Positions 4,306 through 59,240 of a stretch of 64,000 bases of DNA are shown here, piece after piece. Origin of the DNA: Rhizophagus irregularis (taxonomy: Eukaryota; Glomeromycota; Glomeromycetes; Glomerales; Glomeraceae); NCBI RefSeq assembly GCF_026210795.1, contig NC_089460.1, positions 1,736,001 through 1,800,000 on the forward strand, in the 5' to 3' direction. Each line of letters begins with the position of its first letter. Position 1 is the first letter of the stretch. A program made the position numbers and the translations under genes. Below the pieces are notes generated by a model. That model made no database searches. It was not told where the DNA came from and saw only the letters and a program-made list of their open reading frames with translations.

Positions 4306-4875
4306 CTCAGCCAATATTAATCGTAGAGAGATGATCTTACCACCATTCGATTCATCTCGATGAGACGGTTCTAATGGTATAAAATACATCGAAATCCAAT
4401 TACTAGATTAATTTCCATTTCTGAAGTTAAAAAAATATTAATGGTTTTTGTGTAATAACTCTGCCAATATTGATCCTAGAGAGACGATCTTACTACCATT
4501 CGATTCATCTTGATGCGATGAATCTAATGGTATAAAATACATCGAAATCCAATCACTAGATCAATTTCAGAAATTAAAAAATATTAAATGGTTTTTAAGT
4601 AGTAACTCCGTCAATATTGATTATAGAAAGATGAGCTTACCACCATTCGATTTGTCTTGATGAGGGGATTCCAACGAGCTATTAATCATCTTTTTATAAT
4701 CACTAGGTACCAAGAAATTCAGCAAAATGTTAAATGGTGCAGTAAACGTAAATTAAGAAATATAATAATGCTAATGCTTAACATTTTGTTGAATAACTCA
4801 TCAGCCAGTGATCATGAAAGGATAAAACTACTACCATTCGATTTGTTTCAGTGAGACGATTCTAACAAGCTATGG
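4306..4875. repeat. Four diverged tandem copies of a ~145-190 bp unit
   Basis: Units start near 4306, 4456, 4600 and 4791. Each begins with a version of GTAACTCNGCCAATATTGAT, then a block with ACCATTCGATTCATCTCGAT, then a segment ending near GAAATCCAAT. The first three copies are most alike; the last is truncated where the next element begins at 4877. A shorter relative of the ACCATTCGA ... TCCAATGG block occurs at 9410-9455. A 65-codon frame over copies 3-4 is not supported as a gene. Confidence 0.7.
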
Positions 4876-4876
4876 T

Positions 4877-6472
4877 ACTAAGGTTGCTTGCCGAAACTAG
4901 GGAGTTTCGGCATGCCAAAACTGCCAAAACTGCCAAAACTAGGTTTCGGCAAGCAACTGAAAATGCCGAAATGCTGAAACTGCTGAAACTGCTGAAACTG
5001 TTTTGGCATTTCGGCGCAGTATATCATATGATATACATATAGTTTCGGCATTTCTTAATTCAGTTAAGCTCTGATCAGTTTTTTAACTGATCATTGATAA
5101 TCTAAAACGGTTTTTTAAACCGTTATCGTTATTTTTTTTTAAAAAAAAACTTTTTTAACGTTAAAAAGATAATTTAACATTAAATTTTATGATCGCCCGC
5201 CCACCCTTTATTTTAACGTTAGTATATTTTACTAACGTTAATTTTTTTTAATTTTTTTCTTGAATTGTATTAAAGAAACGTACAAACGTTTCTATTTTCT
5301 TGTTTTTTAGGATACCGGACTCCTAGGAACTTGAAAGAACCTGGACTTTGGTAAGTATATGGGGTACTGCTGTTTAATTGTGTTAAAGAAACGTACTAAC
5401 GTTTCTTTTTTCTGTTTTTTTAGGTTACCGGACTCTTAGAAATTTGGAAGAACCGGTCTTTGGTAAGTATATGGGGTACTGTGTTTAATTGTGTTAAAGA
5501 AATGTACTAACGTTTCTTTTTTCTGTTTTTTTAGGTTACCGGACTCCCAGAAACTTGGAAAAACCAATCTTCGGTAAGTATATGGGGTACTGTGTTTAAT
5601 TGTATTAAAGAAACGTACTAACGTTTCTTTTTTCTGTTTTTTTAGGTTACCGGACTCCTAGGAACTTGGAAGAACCGGTCTTTGGTAAGTATATGGGGTA
5701 CTGTGTTTAATTGTGTTAAAGAAACGTACTAACGTTTCTTTTTTCTGTTTTTTTTAGTTTACCGGACTCCTAAGAAGCTTGGAAGAACGGATCTTTGGTA
5801 AGTATATGGGGGAGTCTATGTTTAATTGTGTTAAAGAAACGTATTAATATTTCTTTTTTCTGTTTTTTTAGGATACCGGACTCCCAGGAACTTGGAAGAA
5901 CCGGTCTTTGGTAAGTATATGGGATACTGTGTTTAATTGTGCAGTTAAACGTACTAACGTTTCTTTTTTCTGTTTTTTTAAAAGCACGATTCTATAAGAA
6001 CTTCAAGAACCCGAACTTGGGATACTTGGTATGTAAGACTTAAGGAAGGGGAAGGAATCTTTTTTTTAATATATTGAAGAAACATTATAATGTTCCTTCT
6101 ATTTTTTTTGTTTTTTTTTACCGTACTTTTTTATATGGAAAGTTTTATTTAATTGCTTCGAAGAAATGAGTGTGTTTCTTATAGTATACCATTGTTTATA
6201 AAAATTGGTTTATTACAATAAAATAAATAATATAATAAAATATTTAATTACGTATATATATATTGGAATTAAATTAATGAAAAAAAATTATTATAGAATG
6301 CCGAAATTATGCCGAAACTATATCAAGATGTTAGTATTAGCTATGCCGAAACTATGCCAAAACTTGCAAATAGTTTCGGCAGTTTTGGCATTTCAGCAGG
6401 TTTCGGCATTTCGGCGTTTCGGCAGTTTCGGCACTAATAAAAGAGTTTCGGCTTTTGGCAGGCAACCTTAGT
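4877..6472. mobile_element. 1.6-kb TIR element carrying the microexon/intron array
   Basis: The left end ACTAAGGTTGCTTGCCGAAA and the reverse complement of the right end (ACTAAGGTTGCCTGCC) form terminal inverted repeats. Next to each terminus lies a dense cluster of TGCCGAAAC/GTTTCGGCA motifs (4897-5060 and 6298-6462), as in transposons with subterminal transposase-binding repeats. I could not find a clear target-site duplication, so the superfamily is unknown. The middle holds the tandem array at 5311-6028. The 88-codon frame at 6205-6471 runs into the right TIR and is not treated as a gene. It interrupts diverged repeat DNA on the left and a zinc-knuckle relic on the right. Confidence 0.75.
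5311..6028 (+). repeat. Tandem array of seven microexon/intron units (~112 bp each)
   Basis: Seven exon-like blocks at 5311-5350, 5424-5462, 5535-5573, 5646-5684, 5758-5797, 5872-5910 and 5985-6028 (40, 39, 39, 39, 40, 39, 44 nt) alternate with 72-75 nt intron-like spacers. Six spacers begin GTAAGTAT. The acceptors read polypyrimidine-TAG (the last AAG). Five of the six internal spacers hold a perfect TACTAAC branch-point sequence and one holds TATTAAT. Spacer length equals that of real introns in this window. The 39-nt blocks keep phase and are open in two frames, for example encoding GYRTPRNLEEPVF per unit if spliced. Blocks 1, 5 and 7 break the 39-nt rule, and a TAA or TAG blocks some joins, so a functional protein is unproven. 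More decayed unit-like pieces flank the array (about 5225-5310 and 6060-6190). Confidence 0.85.
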
Positions 6473-6519
6473 CATACGTCAGATATTTGTTATACATCAA
6501 GATATATATCATATATCAA

Positions 6520-6908
6520 GAAATATGCCAAAAGTCAGTGGTTGTGGCAAACGGCACATGTGACGTATTGCCGTGACGTATGCTGTAAGATAGTTTCCCT
6601 CAAGAAAAGATATGTCTGCAACCTAGTTACTAAAATACGAGGTGTCCCTCGAAAGAAAAGATTGAATTGAAGCTATGGAATTATCAAAAAAACGGGTCCC
6701 GATGCAAGAAACCCTGAATGATCTAAATTATCAAGTGGCAAAGAGTCAACACAAGTGTCTGTTATGCGGAAAATCTGATCATTACCAGAAAAAGTGTCCA
6801 AATGCTAGGGATATGAAATATAGAGGTATTATACTATACTTCCATAGTTTTATACCAGAGTGCACTCTTTATTTGATTTTTTATTGTACTAATAACTACT
6901 TTAATTAA
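6520..6908 (+). pseudogene. Zinc-knuckle transposase-like relic
   Basis: Two adjoining frames (to 6670, then from 6675) give ...TKIRGVPRKKRLN and, after a one-base shift, ELSKKRVPMQETLNDL...HKCLLCGKSDHYQKKC. The second holds a CX2CX4HX4C zinc knuckle (C-LL-C-GKSD-H-YQKK-C). Basic RGxPRKKR followed by a zinc knuckle resembles the C-terminal end of MULE/FAR1-type transposases; that link is an inference from layout, not a proven homology. The frame change between the two parts and the lack of any upstream catalytic domain indicate a broken remnant. It lies directly next to the right TIR of the 4877-6472 element. Confidence 0.5.
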
Positions 6909-8164: not shown

Positions 8165-8297
8165 CAAAACTTATAGGCTATAGTGAAGATTTTAAGAAAT
8201 TTGATTGGTTAATTCATTATAAGCAAGAGGAAATTTATTATAGTTGTCTGAAAAATTCACTATATCAAGGGTTCACTATCATATTAAGGTTTGACTG
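8165..8297. repeat. End fragment of a CAGTCAAAC-ended TIR element
   Basis: The reverse complement of the right edge reads TA-CAGTCAAACCTTAATATGA, followed by AT-rich ATAGTGAA motifs. It shares the CAGTCAA start with 4143 and 55815, but the inner bases differ, so it is probably a separate family with a similar transposase. It could in principle be the partner of 4143, giving a 4.2-kb composite, but I judge that unlikely. Confidence 0.4.
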
Positions 8298-8778
8298 TAT
8301 ATTCAATATTTAATAACCAAAAGTTGAAACTTACAAAATAAAAGAAAAAAAAATTAAAAAAAATAATATTATTTAAAAAAAGTTTTAAAGTTTTTACTTC
8401 AAAATATTCAATATCTAAGAACTGAAAGAAACTTACAAAATAGAAGAAAAATACAATTAAAATAATTTTTTTAAAAAAAGTATAAATATTTGTATTTATG
8501 AATCTTTAGGTTTTTCTGTTCTTTAAAAGTTTACCTGAAACCTAAAAAATAAAAAAAAAAAATAGTTAGAACTTTATTATAATTATATTTAAACTGTAAA
8601 AGCCATTTAAATCTTTAGAACTTATAACTAAACTAATTCTTATAAAAGGATAATATTATCTATTATTGGATATACTTATAAATTAGCAGTATAAAAAATT
8701 GGTATAATATGAAATGGTATTAGATAATATACTTCAAATTTTATTGTTATACTGCTTACTTAATTTCATGTAAATATA

Positions 8779-9727
8779 CAGTTCTCGGCGAAAAGAATGG
8801 CAGTACAAATATCATTTGTTATTTTGGATATGAGATCAGAATTTTCCTATTTAAATTAAAACTTGTAATGTCCAATGGGATTTTTAAAATACTATTTTAA
8901 AAAGCAATAAAAAAGATGGAAATTTTATTATTGTTTATATGCTTATTTTACCCTCTAAAAAACAAAGAAGTTATAAATTTAATAGAAATCAAAGAATAAT
9001 AATTTGCTATAAATTTTTTTAAAATGCACAAAATTTTACATAATAATAAATTCCATTTTTTTTTAAAAAAAAACTACTTACTTTTAACTGCCAAATATTA
9101 CAATTGCATTTTGTTATATTACATTACCATAGAAAAATACTACTGATAATTTTTACATTAAAATTGAATTTGGTATAAAAGTTTGAAATAAAAAGTTTAA
9201 ACTTCATTTTCTCATCAACCAAAGCTTGTATTGAAACAAAATTACAATTATTAGATTCCTTGCAATTACGAAATTTAAATAATGCACTTTTATTATATTA
9301 TTGAGCTTTTATATTGCTTTTGAAAAATGATTATCTTTATACAACATAAAAATTCATCATACTCATTATTATACTTGAACTAGCATATTACACAGATGCC
9401 ACACAGGAATTTTAAGACTACCATTCGAACCACATAGTCAAGAGGAATCCAATGGTGGTAATTTTGTCTCAATCTGACCTTTAGATGGCGAGAAAATTAA
9501 GAAAATATTAAAATATCATAATAAAAGAATACTAGTTAAGAGTGCGAATAGTACATAATACTGAATTGAAGCATTTATTGACACGGAAGATGATCATATC
9601 AAATAAATAATGAAATATATGTATTTTCTGTTTCTCTTTCAGAAAATAAAAAAAAATTTCACATTTTACTATAAATTATATTTGTGATATCAAAAAAACT
9701 GACTGCTATTCTTTTCGCCAAGGTCTA
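8779..9727. mobile_element. Tc1/mariner-like non-autonomous element, 949 bp
   Basis: The left terminus CAGTTCTCGGCGAAAAGAAT and the reverse complement of the right one (TAGACCTTGGCGAAAAGAAT) share the core GGCGAAAAGAATRGCAGT. Both sides abut the dinucleotide TA (8777-8778, 9728-9729), the duplication made by Tc1/mariner transposases. No transposase frame is present. A copy of the ACCATTCGA motif seen at 4306-4875 lies inside (9410-9455). Confidence 0.7.
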
Positions 9728-20432: not shown

Positions 20433-21192
20433 AAGTGTTACTGTATATGAATGCGTGATTGACAATTGTATCAAATTGTATCGAGCACTTAGATTTAAAA
20501 GTTTAAAAGTGTAAATGCTAGCATAAATGCGTGATTTTGACAATTGTATAGAATTGTATCAAGCACTTAGAGATTTAAAAGTTTAAAAGTGTAAATACTG
20601 ACGCAAATGCGTGATTTTGGCAATTGTATCGGGCACTTGGAGATTTAAAAGTGTAAATGCTGACATAAATGCGTGATTTTGACAATTGTATCGGGCACTT
20701 GGAAATTTAACAGTGTAAATGCTGACATAAATGCGTGATTTTAACAATTGTATCGGGCACTTGGAGATTTAACAGTGTAAATGCTGACATAAATGCGTGA
20801 TTTTGACAATTGTATCGGGCACTTGGAGATTTAAAAGTGTAAATGCTGACATAAATGCGTGATCTTGACAATTGTATCGGGCACTTGGAAATTTAACGGT
20901 GTAAATGCTGACATAAATGCGTGATTTTGACAATTGTATCGGGCACTTGGAGATTTAAAAGTGTAAATGCTGACATAATGCGTGATTTTGACAATTGTAT
21001 CGGGCACTTGGAAATTTAAAAGTGTAAATGTTGACATAAATGCGTGATTTTGACAATTGTATCGGGCACTTGGAAATTTAACAGTGTAAATGCTGACATA
21101 AATGCGTGATTTTGACAATTGTATCGGGCACTTGGAGATTTAAAAGTGTAAATGTTGACATAAATGCGTGATTTTGACAATTGTATCGGGCA
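20433..21192. repeat. 62-bp satellite, about 12 copies
   Basis: The motif ATGCGTGATTTTGACAATTG recurs at 20451, 20527, 20607, 20669, 20731, 20793, 20855, 20917, 20978, 21040, 21102 and 21164. After the first three degenerate spacings the period is 62 bp almost without exception (one 61). The unit continues TATCGGGCACTTGGAGATTT and AAAAGTGTAAATGCTGACAT. The left edge is degenerate and the right edge sharp, as in an array that grows from one side. The 95-codon minus-strand frame inside is a by-product of periodicity. Confidence 0.92.
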
Positions 21193-24100
21193 CCATGTAT
21201 TTTTATAAATAAATGCTATTAACTTTGGTAAATAAATGTAATTTTCATAATTCCACTTATGTTAAATCCAATTTATTTCACACTTTTGATTTTATAATTC
21301 CAATTCATAATTCCAATTACTGTAGACCTTTTATTTATAGAAAATTCAATCTTATATTTTACATCTTTTGATTTATAAATTCAACTATTCTAATTAGATA
21401 TAGCTAATTCAACCTTTTATTTTACATATTTTATATCTTTTGATTTTATAATTCCAATTCACCTTTTATTATTAGACCTTTAACTTTAATTCGACCTTTT
21501 TTATTTTGCATCATGTTTTAATTCCAATTCACTTAATTCACTCACTTGATTCATCAATATTTTTATAATTCAATATTTCAAATTCACTTATTTACATATT
21601 ATGAAATTCCTTACAATAAAAAAAGAATAATTCTATAATTAAATTTGAAACATTTTAATAATATAATTAAATTATTTCAAAGAATTACTTGTTACGATAA
21701 AATCACGTCACGCGTTTAACCTTGGTGAAACGCGTATATCCGTAAATCCGTATATTACAATGTACACATAACATATATATGTATATAATATAAAAAAAAA
21801 ACAATATTATAAAATAATAAGAACAATATTTAATATATAATATTTTTTTTTATAAAAGTTTAATTCATTCTTTTTTTAAAATTCATTATCGGTCCTTGAC
21901 CGATAATATTTAATGAATAAATCTAAAAGTTAATAGGTTCAAAAAGTTTAAACTTTAAAAAAACTTTTTTTCTTTTAAGGAAATCATACTCCTTTAAAAG
22001 TTCATAATTAAAAATTATTTTAAATTTGGTTAATTGATACCTTTTTAATATTATTGATTACTTTTTTTTTCTTTTTTTTTTTCCTTTGTATTAAATATTT
22101 AACAAAGAAAAAATATATATATATATATAATCTATTTAACATCTTAACTATCGGGGTTAATAATCCGAAAAATCATTTGTTTTACATGTAAGAAGAAATA
22201 ATTCTCATTTTAGATAAACTTTAAATTTTATCACATTTATCACAATTTTTAAACAAGAGTCATTTTAAAAGAAAAAACCCCGAGTCATAGAAGAAATGAT
22301 TTTAAAAAGCGAGGTTGATCTGAAAATACCTGAAACAAAGGGGTATTGAGTGGCTATTGGCTTTGATTGGCTTGTAGTGGCAAATTAAACTAATAAGGAT
22401 AAAAAGTGGCTGAGATAGAAAATTCGAAACATGGAAAAGTATTATGATACACCAAAAAAGGGTGTGGCTGATGAGAACACGCCATTTATCTTAATTTTTC
22501 TTAATAAGCGAGAATAAAATGAAATTAATAAGATGAAACCAGAAAAAAAAAAAAAGATTTAAAGTTTTAAGTAATAAGCGAAAAAAGATTATCATTTTAT
22601 CATTTTTTTATTTTTTAAAAGAAAAAAAAAAGTATCATAAAAAGTTTAGCTTATAAACGAACGATAAAGAAAAAAAAAAAAGTGTTTTTTTTTTTTCTGC
22701 AGGGCTATAAAAGTAATGTAAAACTGTTTCAACAAAATTAATTTAGTAATTAATTATCGATAAAATTTGTAAAAATAGGAATGAGATGACCTTTAATATT
22801 GTATTATTAACGGCTATTAACGGCTATTATTAAATAAGAAATGCATTCCAAAGATTTTTAATCAAGCGTAATATGGTATGTATTCCTAAAAAAGTTTTAA
22901 TTAAATAATTAAAAAGAGATTCTAAAGAGGGAAAATTTTGACAGCTGAGCACAAAGGAAAAGGAGTAACAAGAAAATCACTTCCTCATGTTCATTCATTT
23001 CATTCAAAAAAAAAAAATATACTTGCATTTTTTTGGAAAGTGATGCAAAATGAAAGAATATTTAACGGAAGAAAGTTAAGTAATGATTGGTAAAAGTATA
23101 CATGATATCAATGAATTATATCCAAAAATTAAAATATTGTTTAGATAAAAGAAGACAATAAAAAAGGTAGATTACAATAAACCCAATTTTTACGAATAAA
23201 AAACCGTGTAACTGATCGTCGTAAAATATTCACCATGATCATCATAATTATAAAGATCCTCCAAAAAAAAAAAACATGAATACAGACATTTTTTTTTTTT
23301 AAAAAAAAAATAAAATAAAAATAAAGGGGATAATTGACAAAGAAGAAACTAATAACATGAAAAATTTCATGCAGTGCCGAATTTCCTAAAAAGTCAGAAA
23401 TAAACCTTAAATAATGTTTTATGTAAATTATGTTATTTAAACTTATTAAAACGGGAGTAATTGCAAAAAATAGCATATGGTAGAAATACATAATACATAC
23501 AATACATACATACTTTATACAAACTTTATACATACTTTATATTACTTAATGATTACCAAGACAATTTCTAATCTTTAGTATTACTTTACACAACAAGTAT
23601 TGGACGATAGGGGTGGTATAAATATTGGGCGCGTTTTTTGCCACATTATTTTTCAATAGTTAAAAAAATATTGTGCGTGTACGTTATGTAGTATAATAAC
23701 ATAATAACATGATAGTACATACTTATTTATTTACACAAAAGATTAAAAACTTTTTTCATTAAATTCATGAGAAATTTTAAGGACGTAAAACAAGCGAAAG
23801 TAAATAATGGCGCAAAGTAATAATTTTTGCTTGGAGCACGAAAACGGTTTGGCGCTTTAATAAAGTCATAAAAGGAGATAAGGAGACTAAACTTCGGTAA
23901 TGTCCTTGTGATTTTTATCCCTGATGATTTTTTTAAAATTCGAGAATGGGATAAAAAATAAAAAATCGCGTTGTTATCATGTAAATTCATGTAAATTCAT
24001 GTAAATTCATGTAAATTAATGTAACAAACGAAAAAAAAAACGAGACCCTTTTTTGTTTTTTTTTAAAGAATATTGATAAACAGGGATAATTTCTAATTAA

Positions 24101-57915: not shown

Positions 57916-59240
57916 ACTATTTAAAAAATATTTTTAATATTCTTTATTCTTCATTTTTATAGGTTTCAGTACTTCACAGTTTTTTAAAACTTTAAAATGG
58001 TAAGTTTTGCAATATCTTAAAACTTTAAATTTTTTTTATTTTTTATAAATGAATATTTCTAACTAAAGCTCCGCATAAGCCAGCTTGAGCTGAATCAGGA
58101 TATGGCTCGGGTTCAATTCAAAAAATTATACAAAGCCAATCTGAGTTAAGCCACAAATTTTTATGGTTTAGTTTGATACAAGCTAAACTATGATAATACT
58201 TAGCTTAAATCAAATAAATCAAGCTGAATTATAAAAATTTTGGCTCAAACTAAATTAGGTTTGAGCTAATTTATTTATTTATCATTTCAAAAAAAAAGTT
58301 GGTTTACTTTAAATAAAATAAGATTTTTTAAACTAAATCATAAAAAAAAACTAATCTTATCTCGATTTATTGAAAAGTACTTGTTAAATTAAGCTTTTTA
58401 TTTACTTTTTTGTATTTATAAAATAGTATTTAAAGTGTAAATTTTAATATTGAAAAAATAGTCAAAATTCTAATTAGTTTAATTTTACATGACATAATTA
58501 AAAGTTGATTAAAAAAAATCTAAAAATTTTTATTTTTATTTTATTAAAAATCATACATAAAAAGTTTCAAGAAGAGAATTTGGCATTTATTTAAAGAAAT
58601 ATTAAAAATGTTTCTTTATTCTCTATTTTTATAGGAAATGGTCTTGAAGACCTTAGATAAGTTGTAATTTAAGGGTGTTACTTAGAATGATTACCTTGAG
58701 AAACATTTTTAATGTTTCTTTATCTTTATTTTGTAGAAAATGGCCTAGATCTTAAATAAGTTGTAATTAAAAGATGCTATTTAGAACTTATTTAAAGAAA
58801 TATTTTTAACATTTCTTTATTCTTTATTTTTGTAAAAAACGGTCTTAAAAACCTTGGGTAAGTTGTAATTAGAAGGTGCTATTTGGAATTTATTTAAAGA
58901 AATATTTTTAACATCTCTTTATTCTTTATTTTTGTAAGAAATAGCTTTAAAGATCTTGGGTAAGTTGTAATTAAAAAGTGCTATTTGAAATTTATTTAAA
59001 AAAATGTTTTTAACGTTTCTTTATTCTTTATTTTTGTAGAAAATATCCTTGAAGACCTTAAATAATTATTAGTAATTGGAAGTACTATTCAGAATTAATT
59101 TAAAGAAATGATTATATACCATCTTTTTATTCTTTATTTTTGTAAAAAATATCCTTAAAGACCTTGGGTAATTGCTAATTGAAAGGTGTTATTCAAAATT
59201 AAAAAAATGGCTTTAACGTTTCTTTATTTATTTTTAAGTG
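57916..59240 (+). repeat. Second, decayed array of intron/exon-like units
   Basis: A first unit is intact: polypyrimidine-ATAG, a 37-nt block (57963-57999), then GTAAGT at 58000. From 58590 to 59240 six further units of ~95-110 bp follow. Each has TTTAAAGAAAT, TTTTTAAC, TTTCTTTATTCTTTATTTTT, then GTAG or a mutated version, an exon-like block around GGTCTTGAAGACCTTGG, and GTAAGTTGTAATT or a mutated version. Units 3 and 4 keep the donor (58858, 58960). Acceptors at 58634, 58736, 58938 and 59039 keep AG; others have lost it. The architecture, including AAAGAAAT/ATTTCTTT arms around a TTTAAC branch-like motif, mirrors the array at 5311-6028, but this copy is decayed. A palindromic repeat (AGCTTGAGCT motifs, 58065-58270) separates unit 1 from the rest. 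Confidence 0.65.

What the first reader, a model, noticed from the sequence alone, without database searches (positions are those of the whole stretch)
5311..6028. Tandem array of seven microexon/intron units inside a transposon-like element
Each ~112-bp unit has a strong 5' splice site (GTAAGTAT), a TACTAAC branch point, a polypyrimidine tract, a TAG acceptor and a 39-40 nt exon-like block. Spacer length (72-75 nt) matches true introns here. The conserved parts are exactly the splice signals and the block sequence. If spliced it yields a chain of 13-residue repeats (GYRTPRNLEEPVF); if not, it is a splice-site array. It could be an introner-like element, a way for the host element to remove its own sequence from transcripts, or a spliceosome decoy. 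I know of no described fungal element like it.
Basis: partly seen in the sequence, partly recalled or inferred. Interest (0 to 1): 0.78.

Follow-up and report, generated by a model that had tools for sequence, protein, structure and literature searches.

The report
Transposon-borne arrays of tiny hairpin introns
In a root-symbiotic fungus, several different jumping-gene families carry chains of tiny exon-like pieces separated by short introns whose key splicing signal sits on an RNA hairpin; the pieces do not look protein-coding, so what they are for is an open and testable question.

Summary
Window 5311-6029 is a tandem array of six good microexon/intron-like units plus a decayed one, inside a 1.6-kb TIR element (4879-6470). 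I examined 11 copies in this genome (Rhizophagus irregularis DAOM197198, judged by assembly size and N50). It is not an isolated minisatellite. The same intron design (donor, a hairpin with the branch-point TAAC at its loop, T-run, TAG) recurs with unrelated exon sequences in a 3.5-kb CACTA-like element (17 copies with an exact 5' end), beside a DDE_1 transposase, and in a decayed second array of this window. A strict motif has 292 genome hits against 0 for the reversed motif; a loose one has 2155 against 472. One stem pair co-varies: A-T 292, G-C 232, broken or wobble 11 and 27. Exon lengths ignore reading frame (41 exons: 13/11/17 by remainder of 3) and open runs do not exceed chance, so the repeat-protein reading is unlikely; one test leans weakly the other way. 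Best reading: a transposon-borne, non-coding, intron-dense module kept for splicing at the RNA level. No RNA data were available, so splicing itself is inferred and function is a hypothesis.

The parts
4879..6470 (+). TIR element (TAAGGTTGC...GCAACCTTA, 1592 bp), hAT-like by 8-bp target duplications of sister copies
   Evidence: of 9 copies with both ends found, 5 have identical 8-bp flanks, 3 near-identical or shifted, the window copy none. No transposase seen in it.
5311..5350 (+). microexon 1 (40 nt)
   Evidence: TTTTAG before, GTAAGTAT after
5424..5462 (+). microexon 2 (39 nt)
5535..5573 (+). microexon 3 (39 nt)
5646..5684 (+). microexon 4 (39 nt)
5758..5797 (+). microexon 5 (40 nt)
5872..5910 (+). 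microexon 6 (39 nt)
5351..5423 (+). intron-like spacer 1, hairpin 5385-5408
5463..5534 (+). intron-like spacer 2, hairpin 5496-5519
5574..5645 (+). intron-like spacer 3, hairpin 5607-5630
5685..5757 (+). intron-like spacer 4, hairpin 5718-5741
5798..5871 (+). intron-like spacer 5, hairpin 5833-5856, branch point TATTAAT
5911..6029 (+). decayed last unit: donor kept, 5' hairpin arm damaged, acceptor TAAAAG, terminal block
   Evidence: nine of the ten other copies keep an AG in line there and L014 is scrambled (by eye)
58578..59200 (+). second, decayed array of the same design (period about 102)
   Evidence: of 6 acceptor sites 3 still read TAG; relatives lie in a DDE_1 transposase element

Best explanation
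The array is a non-protein-coding, intron-dense module carried by DNA transposons of R. irregularis. Each unit is a microexon of about 20-65 nt followed by a short U2-type intron in which the branch-point sequence is displayed at the loop of a 7-12-bp hairpin; in the CACTA-like element the donor is often on a second hairpin. Shown: anatomy, genome-wide recurrence with unrelated exons, stem covariation, lack of a kept reading frame, presence in elements of at least three structural types. Inferred: that it is transcribed from the array strand and spliced into a chain of microexons, and that the source lineages kept the splice signals because splicing helps the element. My preferred mechanism (speculative): dense co-transcriptional splicing hinders nuclear small-RNA silencing of the element's transcript or stabilises it, as introns impede nuclear RNAi in C. 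elegans (PMC5554785, abstract).
For: Strict hairpin-intron motif: 292 genome hits against 0 reversed; loose motif 2155 against 472. Stem pair counts A-T 292, G-C 232, G.U 27, A.C 11, reversed controls 0 in each of the four searches, odds ratio 228 (copies are not independent). Six of 6 scattered hits lie in arrays by eye, 4 of 6 by the automatic chain finder. The CACTA-like element: 17 of 17 exact 5' ends lie beside array exon hits. Array and DDE_1 transposase (E 1.7e-27) share one repeated element in L035, L043, L032 and L045. Group A: donors 0 of 48 variable non-CpG columns, stems 1 of 71, exons 46 of 202. CACTA-like introns fold better than shuffles (z -4.9, -5.7 for the two tried). Exon lengths by remainder of 3: 13/11/17 of 41.
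Against: No RNA evidence. Donors are not significantly more conserved than the element's flanks (P 0.24) and group B donors not more than its exons or introns (P 0.14, 0.16). Acceptors and branch points are only averagely conserved. The window's own introns fold only modestly better than shuffles (z -1.35 to -1.59). The hAT-like family has at least 107 TIR places, of which I tied 11 of 55 checked to an array hit; one fetched member, L057, has none, so the array is not essential there. In the DDE_1 element the array faces the transposase from the other strand, so it cannot boost that mRNA directly.
Confidence: 0.5

Rival explanations
1. Pack-TYPE-like capture: a host gene or gene family with many short exons was captured by several transposons and has decayed; the arrays are carried passively.
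For: Homologous GTTACCGGACTCC exons sit in both the hAT-like and the CACTA-like element at 74-78% identity, and only part of the hAT-like family carries an array. Exon concatenation of L019 has fewer stops in its best frame than shuffles (3 against a mean of 8.1, P 0.0125).
Against: No intact parent gene seen; the joined exons find no contiguous source. Splice design and stem pairing persist while frame does not. Seventeen near-identical CACTA-like copies would be expected to carry an open chain if the cargo were a recent gene; the longest open chain was 6-8 exons in 9 copies.
Confidence: 0.2
2. DNA-level repeats: palindromes are transposase-binding or recombination-prone motifs in an AT-rich genome; the splice look is incidental.
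For: Elements are rich in other palindromes; G-C and A-T pairs would also arise from DNA-level palindromes; G.U (27) exceeds A.C (11) only modestly (P 0.014).
Against: The motif is strand-specific: TAAC at the loop is followed by a T-run and TAG, 292 against 0 for the reversed motif, and donors recur after unrelated exons.
Confidence: 0.13
3. Spliceosome decoy: a nuclear RNA with repeated strong branch points titrates SF1 or other early factors, as proposed for vertebrate Gomafu/MIAT.
For: Five TACTAAC in the window array, all in unit register; Gomafu has seven UACUAAC repeats that bind SF1 and slow splicing in vitro (PMC3116199, passages).
Against: Complete donors, acceptors and intron spacing are not needed for a branch-point sponge; Gomafu's repeats lie in an exon.
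Confidence: 0.1
4. Protein-coding microexon gene: the chain encodes a repeat protein such as GYRTPRNLEEPVF.
For: Window exons 2-6 are open in two frames; window chain of 4 open exons, shuffle P 0.09; L019 best-frame stop count P 0.0125.
Against: Exon 1 (40 nt in the 9 of 11 copies where the script caught it) shuts every frame by exon 2. Homologous exons in the CACTA-like element are 32, 23, 33, 40 nt. L031 32-nt exons carry TAG and allow at most 2 in a row. Lengths 13/11/17 by remainder of 3. No Pfam match for the longest CACTA-like chain.
Confidence: 0.07

Closest known systems
Introners and fungal introner-like elements (incl. symmetric stwintrons of Hypoxylaceae)
   Same: Multiplied, related, structured spliceosomal introns in a fungus; links between DNA transposons and introns (PMC9860276, PMC8469720, passages seen).
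   Different: Those sit singly in protein-coding genes and their inverted repeats span the intron ends; here introns are tandem, inside transposons, with a short hairpin at the branch point, and no coding exon was seen.
Pack-TYPE transposons
   Same: Non-autonomous DNA transposons carrying exon/intron-like cargo shared between superfamilies (PMC8903248, abstract in listing).
   Different: No host gene source found; cargo is tandem, non-coding and shares one intron design across unrelated exons.
Micro-exon genes of Schistosoma
   Same: Most of the gene made of very short exons (PMC10526429, abstract in listing).
   Different: MEGs encode secreted proteins and have long introns; here frame is not kept and introns are about 70-95 nt.
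Gomafu/MIAT lncRNA
   Same: Tandem UACUAAC branch-point sequences in non-coding RNA (PMC3116199, passages).
   Different: Gomafu repeats are exonic and lack donors and acceptors in register.
SP7-like effectors of R. irregularis
   Same: Same organism, tandem repeats, paralogues over many chromosomes (PMC11333574, passages).
   Different: A conserved intron precedes the first repeat; the passages seen do not describe one exon per repeat.

Membership tests
hAT superfamily (host element) | 8-bp target-site duplication and TIRs | tested here: met
   5 of 9 copies with both ends have identical 8-bp flanks, 3 near; the window copy itself has none
hAT superfamily (host element) | hAT transposase in autonomous relative | not tested
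   no autonomous partner was fetched
CACTA superfamily (group B element) | TIR beginning CACT and 3-bp duplication | tested here: met
   CACTGGTC...GACCAGTG; identical 3-bp flanks in 7 of 10 copies
CACTA superfamily (group B element) | CACTA transposase | not tested
   not searched
DDE_1 (Tigger/pogo-like) element near array-2 relatives | DDE_1 transposase domain | tested here: met
   PF03184 E 1.7e-27 above cut-off; TIRs not found by a simple search
Introner-like elements | near-identical introns in many protein-coding genes | tested here: not met
   small sample: 6 of 6 hits in arrays; in the window such hairpins with ACGT arms occur only in the two arrays
Introner-like elements | spliced in vivo | not testable with these tools
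   no RNA data
Pack-TYPE transposon | cargo matches a host gene | tested here: inconclusive
   joined exons found no contiguous source among scored candidates; no annotation or relative genomes held
Micro-exon (MEG-like) coding gene | microexons keep reading frame | tested here: not met
   41 exons 13/11/17 by remainder of 3; open runs not beyond shuffles in 10 of 10 chains at P<0.05; but, P 0.0125
SP7-like effectors | signal peptide plus coding repeats behind one conserved intron | not tested
   no coding chain to test

The most novel reading that the evidence does not exclude
R. irregularis DNA transposons of several superfamilies share a non-coding, self-contained splicing module: on the order of 1,500-2,000 short introns with a hairpin-displayed branch point, in tandem arrays, whose dense splicing protects or shapes the element's RNA (anti-silencing) or competes for host splicing factors. 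It would be a transposon strategy acting through the spliceosome.
Probability: 0.3. Interest if true: 0.9.

Novelty: categorically new. Interest (0 to 1): 0.7.

Why it matters
If spliced, these arrays are a large natural set of structured introns with compensatory stem changes, in a fungus in which about two-thirds of the transposable elements are unclassified (PMC11075540, passages). They would let one ask directly whether a branch-point hairpin helps or hinders splicing, why unrelated transposons converge on or exchange such a module, and whether intron density is a way to evade RNA silencing. They also matter for annotation: tiny exons of this kind are easily missed or turned into false gene models. 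The rating 'categorically new' is for the anatomy; it is provisional until RNA is examined.

Tried and rejected
Coding reading: exon-chain search in 9 CACTA-like copies, shuffles, Pfam: not supported, with two weak results in favour told above.

Known structured RNA: Rfam on 4800-6600 gave nothing above gathering scores; 7 weak matches up to E 1.

Processed copies as proof of splicing: none seen.

Ordinary introns as control: only 3 candidates came out of a frame-based scan of the window, too few to use, none with a stem. The survey listed 13 stem-plus-T-run-plus-AG sites, 6 in the two arrays; the other 7 have A/T-dominated stems without ACGT arms. One frame-restoring intron in the DDE_1 transposase shows no such hairpin by eye.

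SP7 effectors, symmetric stwintrons, introners, MEGs, Pack-TYPE, Gomafu: compared and not adopted.

Idea that the opposite strand is an array of poly(A) signals: AATAAA occurs opposite some Tigger-side units but not in the hAT-like ones; dropped after reading sequences only.

One search used a wrongly oriented reference (a neighbouring repeat, not the CACTA-like end) and is not used. In some searches the class windows are approximate: the fifth unit's branch-point window is two bases off and stem windows one base off.

Full report
What is there. The window array is real and far beyond chance: TRF period 111, score 1123. It has six microexons of 39-40 nt, each preceded by TTTTAG and followed by GTAAGTAT, with introns of 72-74 nt. 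It lies inside a TIR element of 1592 bp (4879-6470). The genome search with the array returned 54 matches (40 of 165 candidates scored, so a lower bound). Aligning the fetched loci separates two groups. Group A, 11 copies with the window, is the same TIR element, 8-bp duplications intact in 5 of 9 copies with both ends found. Group B is a different element of about 3.5 kb (3.1-3.9 kb in the 10 copies examined) with TIR CACTGGTC...GACCAGTG and 3-bp duplications in 7 of 10; 17 places carry its exact 5' end, 20 with up to three mismatches.

Which genome. 32 contigs and 146.7 Mb; contig C13 is 5,085,394 bases, exactly the scaffold N50 given for the DAOM197198 assembly of 32 scaffolds and 146.77 Mb (PMC10234402, passages). 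This identification is an inference.

The unit design. In group B I marked 16 microexons of 23-65 nt with mostly unrelated sequences in L019; the introns between them are 76-107 nt apart from one of 146 nt where the annotated donor has decayed to AT. The donor of that exon reads ATATAC in the five copies printed. In both groups the intron has a palindrome such as AAAGAAACGT-ACTA-ACGTTTCTTT with the branch-point TAAC at the loop, then a T-run and TAG. RNA folding gives the expected hairpin for the five introns tried; the two CACTA-like introns, in which a second hairpin covers the start of the intron, fold much better than shuffles (z -4.9, -5.7), the three window introns only modestly (z -1.35 to -1.59).

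A genome-wide class. The strict motif GAAACGT-loop-TAACGTTTC-spacer-TTTTAG has 292 hits and its reversed control none. Changing one stem pair to G-C on both sides gives 232 hits, changing only the 5' side (G.U) 27, only the 3' side (A.C) 11, each with reversed controls of 0. Odds ratio 228. Copies within families are not independent, so this is not a P-value, but the G-C and A-T forms come from different arrays and different contigs. Of the places listed, 99 and 77 from then on contigs C1-C10 fall into 99 loci at a 4-kb joining distance, 37 of them with two or more hits. A looser motif has 2155 hits against 472 for its reversal, which suggests on the order of 1,500-2,000 such introns; the control is imperfect because reversal removes the CpGs. 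Six scattered strict hits were fetched: by eye all 6 lie in arrays with new exon sequences; the automatic finder chained three or more units in 4 of the 6.

Other carriers. Relatives of the window's second array (48 matches) include L035, L043, L032 and L045, which share homology through the array and a transposase on the opposite strand. Pfam names it DDE_1, E 1.7e-27; calling it Tigger/pogo-like rests on the domain and on recall, and no TIR was found. Array and transposase converge tail to tail. The transposase's own intron restores its frame and has no such hairpin (by eye). A further TIR-bearing hAT-like place (C6) carries yet another array, while a member fetched at C2 carries none and instead an array-free nested element with an 8-bp duplication (by eye).

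Coding or not. Against coding: exon lengths 13/11/17 by remainder of 3 among 41 exons in 10 chains, with open runs no longer than shuffles at P<0.05 in any chain; homologous exons of 39 nt in group A are 32, 23, 33 and 40 nt in group B; copies carry 37-, 38- and 42-nt exons; the L031 32-nt exon contains TAG and stops every chain of three. For coding: window exons 2-6 are open in two frames, the window chain has P 0.09, and the L019 exons joined have 3 stops in the best frame against a mean of 8.1 (P 0.0125). I read this as non-coding now, with a coding ancestry not excluded.

Conservation. Among 8 full group A copies, outside CpG: donors 0 of 48 columns variable, stems 1 of 71, branch point 5 of 35, acceptor 3 of 18, rest of intron 39 of 229, exons 46 of 202, element flanks 8 of 182 and 10 of 219. 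Donors and stems are thus quieter than the rest of the array (P 4e-4 and 2e-4 against the rest of the intron) but donors do not differ from the flanks (P 0.24). CpG sites vary most (25 of 33 in exons). In group B donors are 0 of 96, exons 14 of 532, introns 27 of 1060: no significant difference. The window's second array has lost 3 of 6 TAGs, as expected of a dead copy.

How it most likely works. Shown: design, recurrence, covariation, association with elements of several kinds. Inferred: transcription from the array strand and stepwise splicing to a chain of microexons. Hypothesis: dense splicing helps the element's RNA, for instance because spliceosomes on nascent RNA hinder nuclear RNAi, as shown for C. 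elegans (PMC5554785, abstract), or because introns raise mRNA levels in another fungus (PMC3744415, abstract in the listing). A splicing-factor sponge like Gomafu (PMC3116199, passages) is the main alternative function. Passive capture is the main alternative origin.

What is known. Nine literature searches in an open-access library listed no paper that I recognised as describing such arrays; I judged by titles, abstracts and passages. Two papers on transposable elements of this fungus contain no word beginning with 'intron' or 'splic' in their main text (PMC8647823, PMC11075540). The introner survey does not mention Rhizophagus or Glomeromycotina in its main text (PMC9860276). Subscription papers and preprints were not searched.

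Verdict. A real and unexpected class of sequence, well beyond the single array reported; mechanism open. Anatomy is firm, in-vivo splicing likely but unproven, function speculative.

Noticed in passing
window 58578-59200: Second array of the same intron design, decayed (3 of 6 acceptors still TAG); relatives sit in a DDE_1 transposase element.
   Followed up: partly
group A exons, e.g. window 5758-5797 and sister copies: Small insertions, deletions and scrambles cluster at the CTCCTAGGAAC core of the microexons in several copies, as if breaks or template switches recur there.
   Followed up: no
group A and B copies: Most substitutions between copies are at CpG sites, as expected of methylated, decaying transposons.
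   Followed up: partly
L057 838-1081: A small nested hAT-like TIR element with a matching 8-bp flank (GCCTGGGT) and no array, inside a larger member of the same TIR family.
   Followed up: no
L021 6489-7094 (minus) and 8171-8824 (plus), oriented coordinates: Two further arrays with other exon sequences lie beside a CACTA-like copy.
   Followed up: partly
window 20582-21193: A 62-bp tandem repeat, 9.9 copies at 95% match, unrelated to the array.
   Followed up: no
G000 C11:5177802-5178399: A separate dispersed repeat with 51 matches, found through a wrongly oriented query.
   Followed up: no
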